NCBI GenBank assembly: GCA_025808555.1
Contig: CP075526.1
Location: 434,001 to 498,000, forward strand
DNA: 64,000 nucleotides
Origin: Anaerolineales bacterium
GTDB lineage: Bacteria; Chloroflexota; Anaerolineae; Anaerolineales; UBA11579
Reading direction: 5' to 3'
Shown: positions 13,973 through 40,751 of the stretch, piece after piece
Numbering within the stretch: position 1 is the first letter of the stretch
How the letters are laid out: each line of letters starts with the position of its first letter
The notes under the pieces: generated by a model
Databases searched by the model: none
What the model was told of the DNA's origin: nothing
What the model saw: only the letters and a program-made list of their open reading frames with translations
Translations under genes and position numbers: made by a program

Positions 13973-14112
13973 ATGTTCAGGCAACGCGCCAAGCTTAGAC
14001 TGACCTAAGCATGGCCCGCGCGCCGGTAGCAGCGCACCCGGCTTATCAAAACTGCGGCGAGAACTGCGCGTTCTCATTTCTTTTGCACGCGCACTCGCCG
14101 CCAAGGAGCAGG

Positions 14113-14763
14113 ATGGCAAAGAAACAAACAGTGGAAACGATCTCGCGTGCCGCGGTGGTGGTGATCGCCGCCTACATCGCCGCGCAGATGCTCTCGGACG
14201 TGGCCAGCGTCAAGATCGGCGTGCTGACATTGCCGGCCCTCGGCAGCCTGGCGGTGGATATGGGCACCTTCATTTACCCCATCACCTTCACCCTGCGCGA
14301 TCTGGTGCACAAGCTGCTCGGCCGCCAGGCGGCCCGCACGCTGGTGGTGGCGGCCGGCGCCATCAACCTGGTGATGGCGGCCTACCTGGTGTGGGCGGCC
14401 AACTTCCCCAGCGACGCCAGCTGGGGGCTGGGCGCCGAGTTTGCCGCCGTGCTGGCGCCGGTGTGGCGCATCACCCTGGCCTCCATCGCCGCCGAAGTGG
14501 TGAGCGAGCTGCTGGATACGGAGCTCTATCATCTGTTCGTGACGCGCGTCACGCGCCGCTACCAGTGGGCGCGGGTGCTGGTGAGCAACAGCCTCAGCGT
14601 ACCGGTGGACAATGTCATCTTTGCCGTGGGCGCCTTTGGCGGGCTGCTGCCGTGGGCGACGGTATGGGGCATCTTTGTGGTCAATCTGCTGGTGAAGTAC
14701 GCGGTGACGCTGGTGAGCCTGCCGCTGATCTATGTGGTGCCGGAGCGGCGCATTAGAAAATAA
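14113..14763 (+). CDS. VUT family transporter, putative queuosine-precursor transporter
   Basis: The 216-residue membrane protein has about six hydrophobic helices and the VUT/YhhQ-type pattern: VDMGTFIYPITFTLRDLVHKLLG near residue 55 and the conserved VSELLDTELYHLF segment, then SNSLSVPVDNVIF. Homologues import queuine or preQ0/preQ1 for tRNA queuosine. ATG at 14113 has AAGGAG with good spacing. I see no preQ1 riboswitch in the upstream 150 nt. The stop codon abuts the 3' end of the convergent 6S-like RNA. Confidence 0.82.
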   Translation: MAKKQTVETISRAAVVVIAAYIAAQMLSDVASVKIGVLTLPALGSLAVDMGTFIYPITFTLRDLVHKLLGRQAARTLVVAAGAINLVMAAYLVWAANFPSDASWGLGAEFAAVLAPVWRITLASIAAEVVSELLDTELYHLFVTRVTRRYQWARVLVSNSLSVPVDNVIFAVGAFGGLLPWATVWGIFVVNLLVKYAVTLVSLPLIYVVPERRIRK

Positions 14764-14958
14764 AACCCGCTGTGCTACCCAGCGTAGCTGGACTTGCAGC
14801 GGGAGTTTTGAACCCAAAGGGTCAAGCTGGTCTCGCTCCGAAAGCCCGCGGAAGAACACGCGGTTTACTGCGACTGTTCTGGAAGCCGAGCCCGATCTGC
14901 TTGTGTTGGTTCAAAAGCTGAAGGCTGCAAGCCCAGCTTTACGGCAGCACAGCGGGTT
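14764..14958 (-). ncRNA. ssrS: 6S RNA-like structured RNA (about 195 nt)
   Basis: Read on the minus strand, the two ends form a perfect 13-bp closing stem (14946-14958 with 14764-14776). Inside is a 14-nt unpaired 5' bubble strand (14932-14945). On the 3' strand of the bubble there is a small hairpin, CCAGC/GCTGG (14779-14783 with 14787-14791). The long arm continues with an 8-bp helix (14924-14931 with 14793-14800), a 9-bp helix (14908-14916 with 14806-14814), CAAGC/GCTTG and CTCG/CGAG helices, and an AGAACA/TGTTCT helix near the tip. Closing stem, central bubble with a 3'-side hairpin, and interrupted arm of this length are the architecture of 6S RNA, the RNA polymerase regulator. A TATAAG box lies exactly 6 nt before the 5' end, and TTTTATTTT follows the 3' end. 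Identity is by structure only. Confidence 0.65.
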
Positions 14959-14964
14959 ACTTCT

Positions 14965-14970
14965 CTTATA
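14965..14970 (-). promoter_or_regulatory. -10 box (TATAAG) for the 6S-like RNA
   Basis: The minus-strand hexamer TATAAG, preceded by TGC, ends 6 nt before the first base of the closing stem. The same 6-nt spacing separates -10 boxes from start codons in the leaderless genes of this window. Confidence 0.55.
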
Positions 14971-15044
14971 GCACGCCAAGATTAAAGAACGACCATTCTC
15001 TAACCTTACAGGTGGGTTATTAATGGCTCCACACTAGGCAATTC

Positions 15045-15184
15045 GTGCATCCCGAGCGCAGCGAGGGATCCTTGCTTACGTATGAGTAACTCAGGCTCTA
15101 CATAAAAGATGCGCCAGCAAGGATTCTTCCCTGAGCCGAGCTTCGGCGATTCGGGTGCAGGTTTATAAAGCCGGTCAGAATGAC
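15045..15184. repeat. Dispersed intergenic repeat (GTCATTnCGAG family), copy 1
   Basis: This copy begins GTGCATCCCGAGCGCAGCGA and ends near CAGAATGAC, with internal inverted segments (AAGGATC-type arms). It occupies most of the gene-free stretch between the 6S-like RNA and the aspS terminator. It belongs to the same family as the copies at 18.9, 21.2, 23.0 and 40.5-40.75 kb. Confidence 0.6.
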
Positions 15185-15195
15185 ACATAGGTGGA

Positions 15196-15224
15196 TAAAA
15201 AAAGGCCGAGCGAACGCTCGGCCT
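15196..15224 (-). terminator. Intrinsic terminator of aspS
   Basis: GGCCGAGCG and CGCTCGGCC (15204-15212, 15215-15223) form a strong hairpin with a run of T on the minus strand (A run at 15197-15203). It begins 7 nt beyond the aspS stop codon. Confidence 0.9.
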
Positions 15225-15230
15225 TTTTTT

Positions 15231-17012
15231 TTAGTCTTTCTTCTTGGGCATATCCACCTTGATGTGCAGCTCTTTGAGCTGGCGCTCTTCGGTGGGCGAC
15301 GGGGCGTCCGCCATCACATCGCGGGCGGCCTGGTTCTTGGGGAAAGCGATGACCTCGCGGATGCTCTCTTCATCGGCCAGGATCATGGCCAGGCGGTCAA
15401 TGCCGGAGGCGATGCCGCCGTGCGGCGGCGCGCCGTACTCGAAGGCTTCCAGCATGTGGCCAAAACGCTCCTGCGCCACGTCCTCGCTCAAGCCGATCAG
15501 CTTGAAGATGCGCGATTGCAACGCGCGGTCGTGGATGCGGATCGAGCCGCCGGCCACCTCGGTGTTGTTGAGCACCATGTCGTACTGCGTGCCGCGCATG
15601 TTGGCGGGGTCCTTCTCGATCAGGTCAATGTCATCCGGCATTGGGGAAGTGAACAGATGCTGGCTGGGGTCCCAGCGCTGCTCCTCCTCGTTCCAGAAGG
15701 CGAAGGGGAAGTCGATGACCCAGCAGAACGCCAGCAGATCCGGATCGGCCAGTTTGAGCTGCTCTGCCAGGTGCACGCGCAGGCGGCCCAGGGTGTCGTA
15801 CACCACGGCCGGCTGGTCAGCCACGAACAGCAGCAGGTCGCCCGGCTCGGCGCTCATGGCCTGCTTGAGCGCGGCCAGCCCTTCGGGGCTCAGGAACTTG
15901 ACGAAAGACGAACGGTCCTCGCCCTCGGCGGCTACGGCCAGCCAGGCCAGGCCCTTGGCCTTGAACTGCTTGACGTAGTCGGTCAGCGCGTCGATCTCTT
16001 TGCGGCTGGCGCTGCCCATGCCCTTGGCGTTGATGCCGCGCACATGGCCGCCGGCAGCCACGGCGTCTTCAAAGACTTTGAAGCCGCTGCCCGCGGCCCA
16101 GGCGGTGAGGTCTTGCAGTTCCATGCCGTAGCGCATGTCTGGGTTGTCTTTGCCGAAGCGCGCCATGGCCTCTTTGTAATGCAAGCGCGGCCAGGGCTCA
16201 GACAGCAGGCGCTTGTTAGGCACCAGCTCTTTGACCATGGCGGTATACATGCGCTCCATTAGATCCATCACGTCTTCGCGCTGCACGAACGACATCTCGA
16301 TGTCCAGCTGGGTGAACTCCGGCTGACGGTCGCCGCGCAAATCTTCGTCGCGGAAGCAGCGCGCGATCTGGAAATAGCGCTCCATGCCCGCCACCATGAG
16401 CAGCTGCTTAAGCTGCTGCGGCGACTGGGGCAGCGCGTAGAACTCGCCTGCGTGCACGCGCGAGGGCACCAGGTAGTCGCGCGCGCCCTCGGGCGTGGTC
16501 TTGAACAGGATCGGCGTCTCGATCTCGAGGAAGTCTTCCTTGTCCATGTAATCGCGAATGAACTTGACGATCTTGTGGCGCAGCACAATGTTGCGCTGCA
16601 TGCGCTCGCGGCGCAGATCGAGATAGCGGTACTTCAGGCGGGCGTTCTCGTCCACTTCTTCGTCTTTGTTGATGGCGAAGGGCACCGGCTTGGCCTGGTT
16701 GAGCACCTTGAGCTCGGTCACGGCCACTTCGATCTGGCCGGTGGCCAGTTCGGCGTTCTGCATGCCCTCGGGGCGGGCGCGTACTACGCCGGTGACCTGC
16801 AGCACCCACTCGCTGCGCACGGGCTCGAAGGCGGCGTGCGCCTCGGGGGCCTTCTCGGGGTCGGTGACGATCTGGACTAAACCGAAACGGTCGCGCAGGT
16901 CAATGAAGGTAAGCCCGCCGTGGTCTCGGCGGCGGTGCACCCAGCCGGCCAGCGTGACGGTTTGTCCGCTGTGCTCGGCGCGCAGTTCACCGCAGGTATG
17001 GGTCTTGTACAT
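15231..17012 (-). CDS. aspS: Aspartyl-tRNA synthetase, probably non-discriminating
   Basis: The 593-residue class II synthetase has the N-terminal anticodon-binding domain, motif 2 ([20 protein letters not shown]), the bacterial GAD insertion, and motif 3 ([19 protein letters not shown]). H31 (RRRDHGG) and G83 (RARPEGMQ) are the residues that mark non-discriminating bacterial enzymes; E. coli, which is discriminating, has Leu and Lys at the equivalent sites. So this enzyme probably also charges tRNA-Asn with Asp, to be amidated by GatCAB. That specificity is inferred from two residues. It is preceded by a structured leader with a terminator hairpin. Confidence 0.95.
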
Positions 17013-17203: not shown

Positions 17204-18103
17204 TCAGTCTAGAGCTAAGTAATAGACTGGCATTAGAGGCAAACGTTTCTGGGCCTCAGGGGATAAATTCTCAAAGTTCTTTACCCAAAGATCAAAGAAT
17301 TTACTTAGATTTATTAAAGTCACCAGTTTATTCTCCTGCCCACGAGCAGCTTCTTCTGCGTCCCTTGTGAACCCTGAAGACGAAACAAAGATGCCCACTC
17401 GGTCGGCTCCAATGACAGAAAGAAACTCTCGCAAATCCTTTGATGAGACGCTCTGAGAAGTCTTGTGTTTGACTTGAACAATGATCCGGGGCTTTTTCGC
17501 TCCTAGTGGGTCATTGAATGCCACAATATCAATCCCTTTGTCCGGCCCCGGAGGAGCAATCCAATCCACATGGTAGCCCATTGCCGTCAGCAAATCCCCA
17601 ACAAGGTTCTGAAAGTCATAAGGGTCCATTTCCAAGAGGAAATCACGGACTTGCTGCCAAGCTTGTTCCTGAGCTTCCTCTAAAGCAATTAAAGCCGTTG
17701 AAGCAGAAGGCTCCTCAAGTTCCCCACCGTCTTCTTCAGACAAAGTTTCTTGAGAGCTTGCCCACTTTTTATAAATGTCATACGCTGTTCGATAAAGTTT
17801 CTCGGGATCCACTATCGTTTCATTTGCTTTTCGACCTTCATCTGTCACTGTCCAGATACCCTTATCTTTATAGAGCCATCCAGCTTTGACGGTTGGAATC
17901 GTGGCAAATCGAACAATCTTTTCAAAACGTGGCCGATGACTTGGATCCGACGGATAGCTACCCCGCTCAAAATCAGTAAGCTCGATTCTCTTTCCTAATT
18001 CAGCGAGAATTGCTTTGGCGGGCATGCCTTCAGGTTTTTCAGCAAGTATTGCGAATACGATTTTTAGAAATTCGCCATTTCTCTTTGGAGTTATGTTAGC
18101 CAT
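17204..18103 (-). CDS. mrr: Mrr-type restriction endonuclease
   Basis: The 299-residue protein has an N-terminal winged-helix Mrr domain (about residues 1-100, with GWLYKDKGIWTVTDEG) and a C-terminal Mrr catalytic domain of the PD-(D/E)XK fold. Catalytic residues visible are D192 (DKGIDIVAF) and Q210-x-K212 (IIVQVKHK), preceded by the DFQNLVGDLL helix. Mrr-type enzymes cut methylated foreign DNA. No methyltransferase or specificity subunit is adjacent, as expected for a type IV enzyme. The gene is much more AT-rich than its neighbours and lies next to a tRNA gene, so it is probably acquired. Confidence 0.87.
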   Translation of the reverse strand: MANITPKRNGEFLKIVFAILAEKPEGMPAKAILAELGKRIELTDFERGSYPSDPSHRPRFEKIVRFATIPTVKAGWLYKDKGIWTVTDEGRKANETIVDPEKLYRTAYDIYKKWASSQETLSEEDGGELEEPSASTALIALEEAQEQAWQQVRDFLLEMDPYDFQNLVGDLLTAMGYHVDWIAPPGPDKGIDIVAFNDPLGAKKPRIIVQVKHKTSQSVSSKDLREFLSVIGADRVGIFVSSSGFTRDAEEAARGQENKLVTLINLSKFFDLWVKNFENLSPEAQKRLPLMPVYYLALD

Positions 18104-22991: not shown

Positions 22992-22998
22992 ACTGTTT

Positions 22999-23112
22999 GT
23001 CATTCCGAGCGCAGCGAAGCAATCGGGTTTCAAAAATTTTAGAGCGCAAACCCGGATTGCTTCGTCGGCTGAAGTTGCACGACATGCAACTTTCAGCATT
23101 CCTCGCAATGAC
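22999..23112. repeat. Dispersed intergenic repeat, copy 4 (full length)
   Basis: The 114-nt element begins GTCATTCCGAGCGCAGCGAA and ends CTCGCAATGAC, so its ends are inverted repeats. Internal arms GCAATCGGGTTT and AAACCCGGATTGC also pair. The element can fold as one long hairpin. Confidence 0.8.
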
Positions 23113-40640: not shown

Positions 40641-40655
40641 AATGATGGCGATCCT

Positions 40656-40751
40656 GTCATTCCGAGCGAAGCGAGGAATCCTTTAGGGCATAAAAGATCT
40701 GGCCTGGATATTGAAATAGCCAAAGGATCATTAGCGCTGCTTCGGAATGAC
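40656..40751. repeat. Dispersed intergenic repeat, copy 6 (full length)
   Basis: The 96-nt element starts GTCATTCCGAGCGAAGCGAG and ends GCTTCGGAATGAC, with internal arms ATCCTTT and AAAGGAT. It follows copy 5 after 15 nt. Together they fill the 315-nt gap between pckA and the D-amino-acid oxidase gene. Confidence 0.85.

What the first reader, a model, noticed from the sequence alone, without database searches (positions are those of the whole stretch)
14764..14970. Candidate 6S RNA with promoter, hand-folded
Pairings of 13, 8 and 9 bp, all perfect, define a closed rod with a central bubble and a small hairpin on the 3' side of the bubble. Size (195 nt), 3' T run and a -10 box 6 nt upstream all agree on the minus strand. 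6S RNA sequence is poorly conserved, so sequence-only annotation can miss it.
Basis: partly seen in the sequence, partly recalled or inferred. Interest (0 to 1): 0.72.

Follow-up and report, generated by a model that had tools for sequence, protein, structure and literature searches.

The report
Divergent 6S RNA missed by Rfam
A 195-base stretch next to the aspartyl-tRNA synthetase gene of an uncultured Chloroflexota bacterium encodes a 6S RNA, the common bacterial RNA that parks RNA polymerase, in a form divergent enough that the standard Rfam model does not find it; it is a real new member of a well-known family rather than a new kind of thing.

Summary
The minus strand of 14764-14958 folds into a 195-nt rod (-96.4 kcal/mol for 14764-14970, z = -6.4). 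All three hand-drawn helices exist. The gene is nonetheless 6S. (1) A covariance model built from 23 RF00013-confirmed 6S RNAs of other genera in the class, with no member of this genus, has its best hit in the whole genome here, on the minus strand (E = 6.7e-5). (2) Seven other genomes of the genus carry the RNA, and the syntenic orthologue in a sister genus reaches the RF00013 gathering score. (3) The order aspS then 6S, same strand, recurs across the class, and B. subtilis 6S-1 also lies beside aspS. (4) The closing stem and template helix covary. (5) An extended -10 box and a 3' U tract are conserved. The predicted product-RNA template, GCUUUUGAACCAAC, resembles that of B. subtilis 6S-1. 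RF00013 probably misses it because the closing arm gained about 15-20 nt per side in this subclade and bubble sequences diverged. One nearly complete genome of the genus appears to have no 6S. Ordinary biology, useful annotation, no new kind.

The parts
14764..14958 (-). 6S RNA gene, about 195 nt (predicted +1 at 14958; 3' end in the U tract near 14757-14765)
   Evidence: fold z -6.4; clade 6S covariance model hit; homologues in seven other genomes of the genus
14965..14973 (-). extended -10 promoter element TGCTATAAG, 6 nt upstream of the predicted start
   Evidence: TG-N-TATAA conserved at similar spacing in the genus members and several family members aligned
14943..14958 (-). closing stem P1, 5' strand
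   Evidence: inverted repeat 94% complementary; paired in all nine sequences tested
14764..14779 (-). closing stem P1, 3' strand; the following U run may make this end of the rod act as an intrinsic terminator
14780..14792 (-). 3' half of the closing-arm expansion found in G000, G001, G006, G007, G008; approximate limits
   Evidence: absent from G003, G009, G010, G012 in the alignments
14932..14942 (-). 5' half of the closing-arm expansion; approximate limits
   Evidence: alignment
14905..14918 (-). predicted product-RNA template GCUUUUGAACCAAC; start opposite C at 14905 gives pRNA 5'-GUUGGUUCAAAAGC
   Evidence: motif conserved in the class; compared with B. subtilis 6S-1 pRNA 5'-GUUCGGUCAAAACUA (PMC12005410); inference
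14806..14814 (-). 3' strand of the template helix (GGUUCAAAA), pairs with 14908-14916
   Evidence: covariation; pair probability 0.96 in the free RNA
14811..14823 (-). alternative 3'-bubble hairpin GACCC-UUU-GGGUU, mutually exclusive with the template helix
   Evidence: probability 0.00 free, 0.50-0.56 with the template masked
14757..14765 (-). U tract at the 6S 3' end; overlaps the stop codon of the convergent queT-like gene
   Evidence: sequence; T-rich 3' end kept in relatives
15231..17012 (-). aspS, aspartyl-tRNA synthetase, upstream neighbour on the same strand
   Evidence: NCBIfam TIGR00459/PRK00476
15197..15230 (.). perfect inverted repeat with T run, terminator after aspS
14011..14763 (+). 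queuosine precursor transporter gene (TIGR00697), convergent neighbour

Best explanation
This is the 6S RNA gene (ssrS/bsrA orthologue) of this Anaerolineales lineage, transcribed on the minus strand from its own extended -10 promoter downstream of aspS. Shown here: homology to 6S by model and by position, a conserved rod, and covarying closing stem and template helix. Inferred from the family: the folded rod mimics an open promoter and sequesters the housekeeping sigma-RNA polymerase holoenzyme when nutrients are scarce. When NTPs return, the polymerase starts on the bubble at the C at 14905 and copies GCUUUUGAACCAAC into a short pRNA (5'-GUUGGUUCAAAAGC). This opens the template helix, frees the GGGUU strand for a small hairpin, and the RNA is released. 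It resembles the Bacillus 6S-1 type more than the E. coli type.
For: Strong fold, z -6.4. Model R1, built from 23 RF00013-confirmed 6S RNAs of other genera, hits window 14782-14941 minus at E 2.7e-6 and 25.7 bits, against 9.3 bits on the plus strand. In the whole-genome search it is the best hit (E 6.7e-5); the next hit is 14.1 bits and lies in what looks like coding sequence. R1 also finds the same RNA in G010, G009 and G003 with E 4e-16 to 6e-10. Sister-genus orthologue G012, also between aspS and queT, scores 46.4 bits, equal to the RF00013 gathering score. DNA homologues 84-86% identical. Of 80 aspS loci of the class, 41 carry an R1 hit, all 41 on the aspS strand and downstream. Covariation in A3: 96.2% of cells paired against 91.7% in shuffles, 21 double changes against 5.2, and sliding the partner destroys it. 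Within the genus the template helix has U-A to A-U in G007/G008. The pRNA template resembles that of B. subtilis 6S-1 (PMC12005410).
Against: RF00013 itself gives no match even at E <= 10. The five genus sequences with the expanded arm score low on R1 (12.7-27.8 bits), and the R1 alignment of the window misplaces the closing stem. No expression, RNAP-binding or pRNA data exist here. The 3'-bubble hairpin is not in the minimum-energy fold of the free RNA.
Confidence: 0.96

Rival explanations
1. A structured intergenic element, a long bidirectional terminator between the convergent aspS and queT genes, with no separate RNA product.
For: It lies between convergent genes; part of the 3' arm followed by the U tract scores as a terminator on the minus strand; the + strand also folds well.
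Against: aspS already has its own perfect terminator-like repeat at 15197-15230. The conserved sequence lies in the interior (GAACCAACAC, GGUUC) and not only in the arms. A -10 box is conserved upstream, and an independent 6S model recognises the minus strand.
Confidence: 0.02
2. A cis-regulatory RNA (riboswitch or leader) of the neighbouring queuosine transporter gene.
For: The neighbour belongs to a gene class often controlled by preQ1 riboswitches (own knowledge).
Against: The RNA lies at the 3' end of that gene and on the opposite strand. No preQ1 or other riboswitch family matches. In many relatives the RNA stays with aspS without a detectable queT neighbour.
Confidence: 0.005
3. An RNA of the Ms1 type or another RNAP-binding RNA that looks like 6S but binds core enzyme.
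For: Such rods exist in Actinobacteria (PMC9130861 abstract).
Against: The template motif and aspS linkage are those of 6S, and RF00013-positive orthologues sit at the same locus in the same family.
Confidence: 0.015

Closest known systems
Bacillus subtilis 6S-1 RNA (BsrA)
   Same: Lies beside aspS (aspS-yrvM intergenic region, title of Suzuma 2002 as cited in PMC12005410; that this is bsrA is own knowledge); template giving 5'-GUUCGGUCAAAACUA against predicted 5'-GUUGGUUCAAAAGC here and 5'-GUUGGCUCAAAAC in the class; template helix opened by pRNA synthesis and small 3'-bubble hairpin (PMC8876501)
   Different: Closing arm is expanded here; the 3'-bubble hairpin is not predicted in the free RNA here; no experimental data
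Anaerolineae 6S RNAs recognised by RF00013
   Same: Orthologous position, motif GUUUUGAGCCAACAC...GGUUCAAAAC, closing stem, promoter
   Different: The window's subclade lost the U-G pair of CCCUGC/GCGGGG, and the CACACGGCA motif and CCUGC-GCAGG hairpin sequence of the class consensus are not kept; it gained two insertions in the closing arm
Weissella 6S RNA (lactic acid bacteria)
   Same: Precedent: a genus whose 6S was barely picked up by the model and was located by synteny and a clade model (PMC8414754)
   Different: Different phylum and neighbour genes (rarA, uspA); there RNA-seq was available
Escherichia coli 6S RNA (SsrS)
   Same: Rod with closing stem, central bubble, apical arm, similar size
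   Different: E. coli forms a 9-bp 3'-bubble hairpin on pRNA synthesis (PMC8876501); different neighbours (own knowledge)

Membership tests
6S RNA (SsrS/BsrA) as a homologous RNA family | Homology to accepted 6S RNAs | tested here: met
   R1 trained on RF00013-confirmed members outside the genus: best hit in genome, E 6.7e-5; syntenic orthologue at the RF00013 gathering score
6S RNA (SsrS/BsrA) as a homologous RNA family | Rod of about 160-240 nt closed by a long terminal stem, with central bubble and apical arm | tested here: met
   covariation of P1 and template helix in the clade
6S RNA (SsrS/BsrA) as a homologous RNA family | Product-RNA template in the 5' side of the bubble | tested here: inconclusive
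   Template-like motif conserved and similar to B. subtilis 6S-1; synthesis not testable here
6S RNA (SsrS/BsrA) as a homologous RNA family | Own promoter and discrete abundant transcript | tested here: inconclusive
   Conserved extended -10 and U tract; no transcript data
6S RNA (SsrS/BsrA) as a homologous RNA family | Binds sigma-RNA polymerase holoenzyme and blocks promoters | not testable with these tools
   needs biochemistry
Rfam model RF00013 (as a scored model) | Score at or above 46.4 bits | tested here: not met
   No match in window or genome at E <= 10. This is a detection threshold and not a defining trait of 6S RNA; the model finds nothing in ten of eleven genomes of this genus and scores the eleventh below cut-off
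preQ1 or other riboswitch | 5' leader of the controlled gene and match to a riboswitch model | tested here: not met
   3' of queT on the opposite strand; no model match

The most novel reading that the evidence does not exclude
The closing arm of this subclade's 6S has been rebuilt by paired insertions that can fold either as an extended rod or as two side hairpins (compare the G000 and G006 folds), adding a structural switch or processing site. In the close relative G002 the gene has been lost outright from between aspS and queT and replaced by repeats, so 6S function in this genus may be changing.
Probability: 0.15. Interest if true: 0.45.

Novelty: new member of a known kind. Interest (0 to 1): 0.3.

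Why it matters
It fills a 6S annotation gap in a genus of uncultured Anaerolineales and suggests why the general model fails there. It also suggests that the aspS-6S linkage and the template sequence are shared between Bacillus and Chloroflexota, which would make position plus a clade model a practical way to find missed 6S genes. It predicts a specific pRNA that can be tested.

Tried and rejected
RF00013 and all of Rfam at permissive thresholds on the locus: the listed matches all overlap the neighbouring aspS terminator, lie below their families' gathering scores and are taken as chance matches. Second 6S copy: none; the next R1 hit in the genome (14.1 bits) and the G002 hit (17.4 bits) look like coding sequence, apparently hisS, which I did not confirm by a protein search. 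Search for the motif GAACCAACAC in G002, G004 and G005: hits present but none in a 6S-like context. The first alignment used the wrong strand for the window's own locus and was redone. Riboswitch and bidirectional-terminator readings were considered and rejected.

Full report
What was checked. The minus strand of 14764-14970 was read and folded. The fold is far better than shuffles (z -6.4, 0 of 200). The -10 box lies 6 nt upstream and is preceded by TG, and a U tract follows the closing stem. The small 3'-bubble hairpin is possible but competes with the 9-bp helix.

Rfam. A scan of the window at gathering thresholds finds only two tRNAs. A permissive scan of 14700-15240 returns no RF00013 match, and RF00013 has no match in the 2.24-Mb genome at E <= 10.

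Relatives. The DNA has homologues 84-86% identical in four other genomes of the genus, and the same gene order aspS - RNA - queT is kept in most. In genome G006 the RNA and queT stay together but aspS is about 7 kb away. The orthologue in a sister genus (G012), also between aspS and queT, scores 46.4 bits with RF00013, exactly the gathering score, on the same strand as aspS. In the family, RF00013 finds 6S in nine of the thirteen genomes of other genera, but in only one of the eleven genomes of this genus, below cut-off (37.7 bits in G010). In the class, 239 of 298 genomes have a match. So 6S is normal in the class, and this genus is where the model fails.

Independent test. I aligned 23 RF00013-confirmed 6S RNAs of the class, none from this genus, and built a covariance model R1. 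R1 hits the window at 14782-14941 on the minus strand with E 2.7e-6; the plus-strand score is 9.3 bits. In the whole genome it is the best hit (E 6.7e-5; next hit 14.1 bits). The same model finds the RNA in G010, G009 and G003 with strong scores and in G006, G007, G008 and G001 with weak ones. A core model of the genus plus G012 (R2) finds a single locus in each of eight genus genomes; those sequences trained it, so this shows uniqueness, not independent detection.

Structure in evolution. In the 23 class sequences the closing stem and the template helix GUUUUGAGCC/GGUUCAAAAC are paired in 96.2% of cells (shuffles 91.7%). There are 21 double-changed cells (shuffles 5.2), and sliding the partner by 1-3 columns drops pairing to 35-49%. 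Within 31 sequences including the genus, the template helix shows U-A to C-G, U-A to G-C and, in G007/G008, U-A to A-U; 3 of 2000 shuffles reach the observed pairing. Relatedness inflates such counts, so they are supporting evidence only.

Why Rfam misses it (inference). Compared with G003, G009, G010 and G012, the subclade of the window carries insertions of about 15-20 nt in both strands of the closing arm, longer in G001. Sequence features of the class consensus are also lost (the U-G pair in CCCUGC/GCGGGG in the window's subclade, CACACGGCA, and the CCUGC-GCAGG hairpin sequence). G010, without the insertions, scores 37.7 bits with RF00013; the genomes with insertions have no match. Divergence matters too, because G009 and G003 lack the insertions and are also missed.

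Genomic position. Of 80 aspS loci of the class fetched from genome contigs, 41 carry an R1 hit, all on the aspS strand and downstream of it. Some loci are cut short by contig ends, so 41 is a lower bound. B. [quoted passage not shown] the identification of that region with bsrA, the 6S-1 gene, is my own knowledge).

Mechanism. The B. subtilis 6S-1 pRNA is 5'-GUUCGGUCAAAACUA (PMC12005410) and its start is nt 40 in the 5' bubble (PMC8876501). The class consensus here would give 5'-GUUGGCUCAAAAC and the window 5'-GUUGGUUCAAAAGC from 14905. In the free fold the template helix has pair probability 0.96 and the alternative hairpin 0.00; with the template masked, as by a pRNA, the hairpin rises to 0.50-0.56. 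This fits pRNA-induced refolding of the Bacillus type. RNAP binding, pRNA synthesis and growth-phase control are inferred from the family and not shown.

A possible loss. Genome G002 (96% complete, two contigs; aspS 95% identical) keeps aspS and queT less than 700 bases apart, but the interval holds repeats and no 6S, and neither model finds a believable 6S elsewhere. It is one assembly of probably uncultured origin, so this stays a lead.

Verdict. A real 6S RNA that the standard model misses, a new member of a known kind with a lineage-specific closing arm. Interest is modest.

Noticed in passing
L076 850-1510 (genome G002, between aspS and queT): A close relative lacks the 6S RNA at the ancestral site, which is filled with direct and inverted repeats; no 6S found elsewhere in that nearly complete genome.
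   Followed up: partly
15056-15185; 22998-23011; 40655-40683: Pieces of an intergenic repeat element (TGTCATTCYGASCG and AAGGATTCYTC, with an inverted repeat at 15056-15136) recur in the window and lie beside the 6S gene in relatives; TGTCATTCNGANCG occurs 3 times against 0.19 expected.
   Followed up: partly
genomes of family f47 (G092, G124, G150, G170, G189): Each carries two RF00013 matches, i.e. possibly two 6S RNA genes.
   Followed up: no
17204-18103 (-): ORF of 299 aa upstream of aspS that reads like an Mrr-type restriction endonuclease from its motifs (own reading); no NCBIfam match.
   Followed up: no
L002 (genome G006): The 6S-queT pair has been separated from aspS by about 7 kb.
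   Followed up: no
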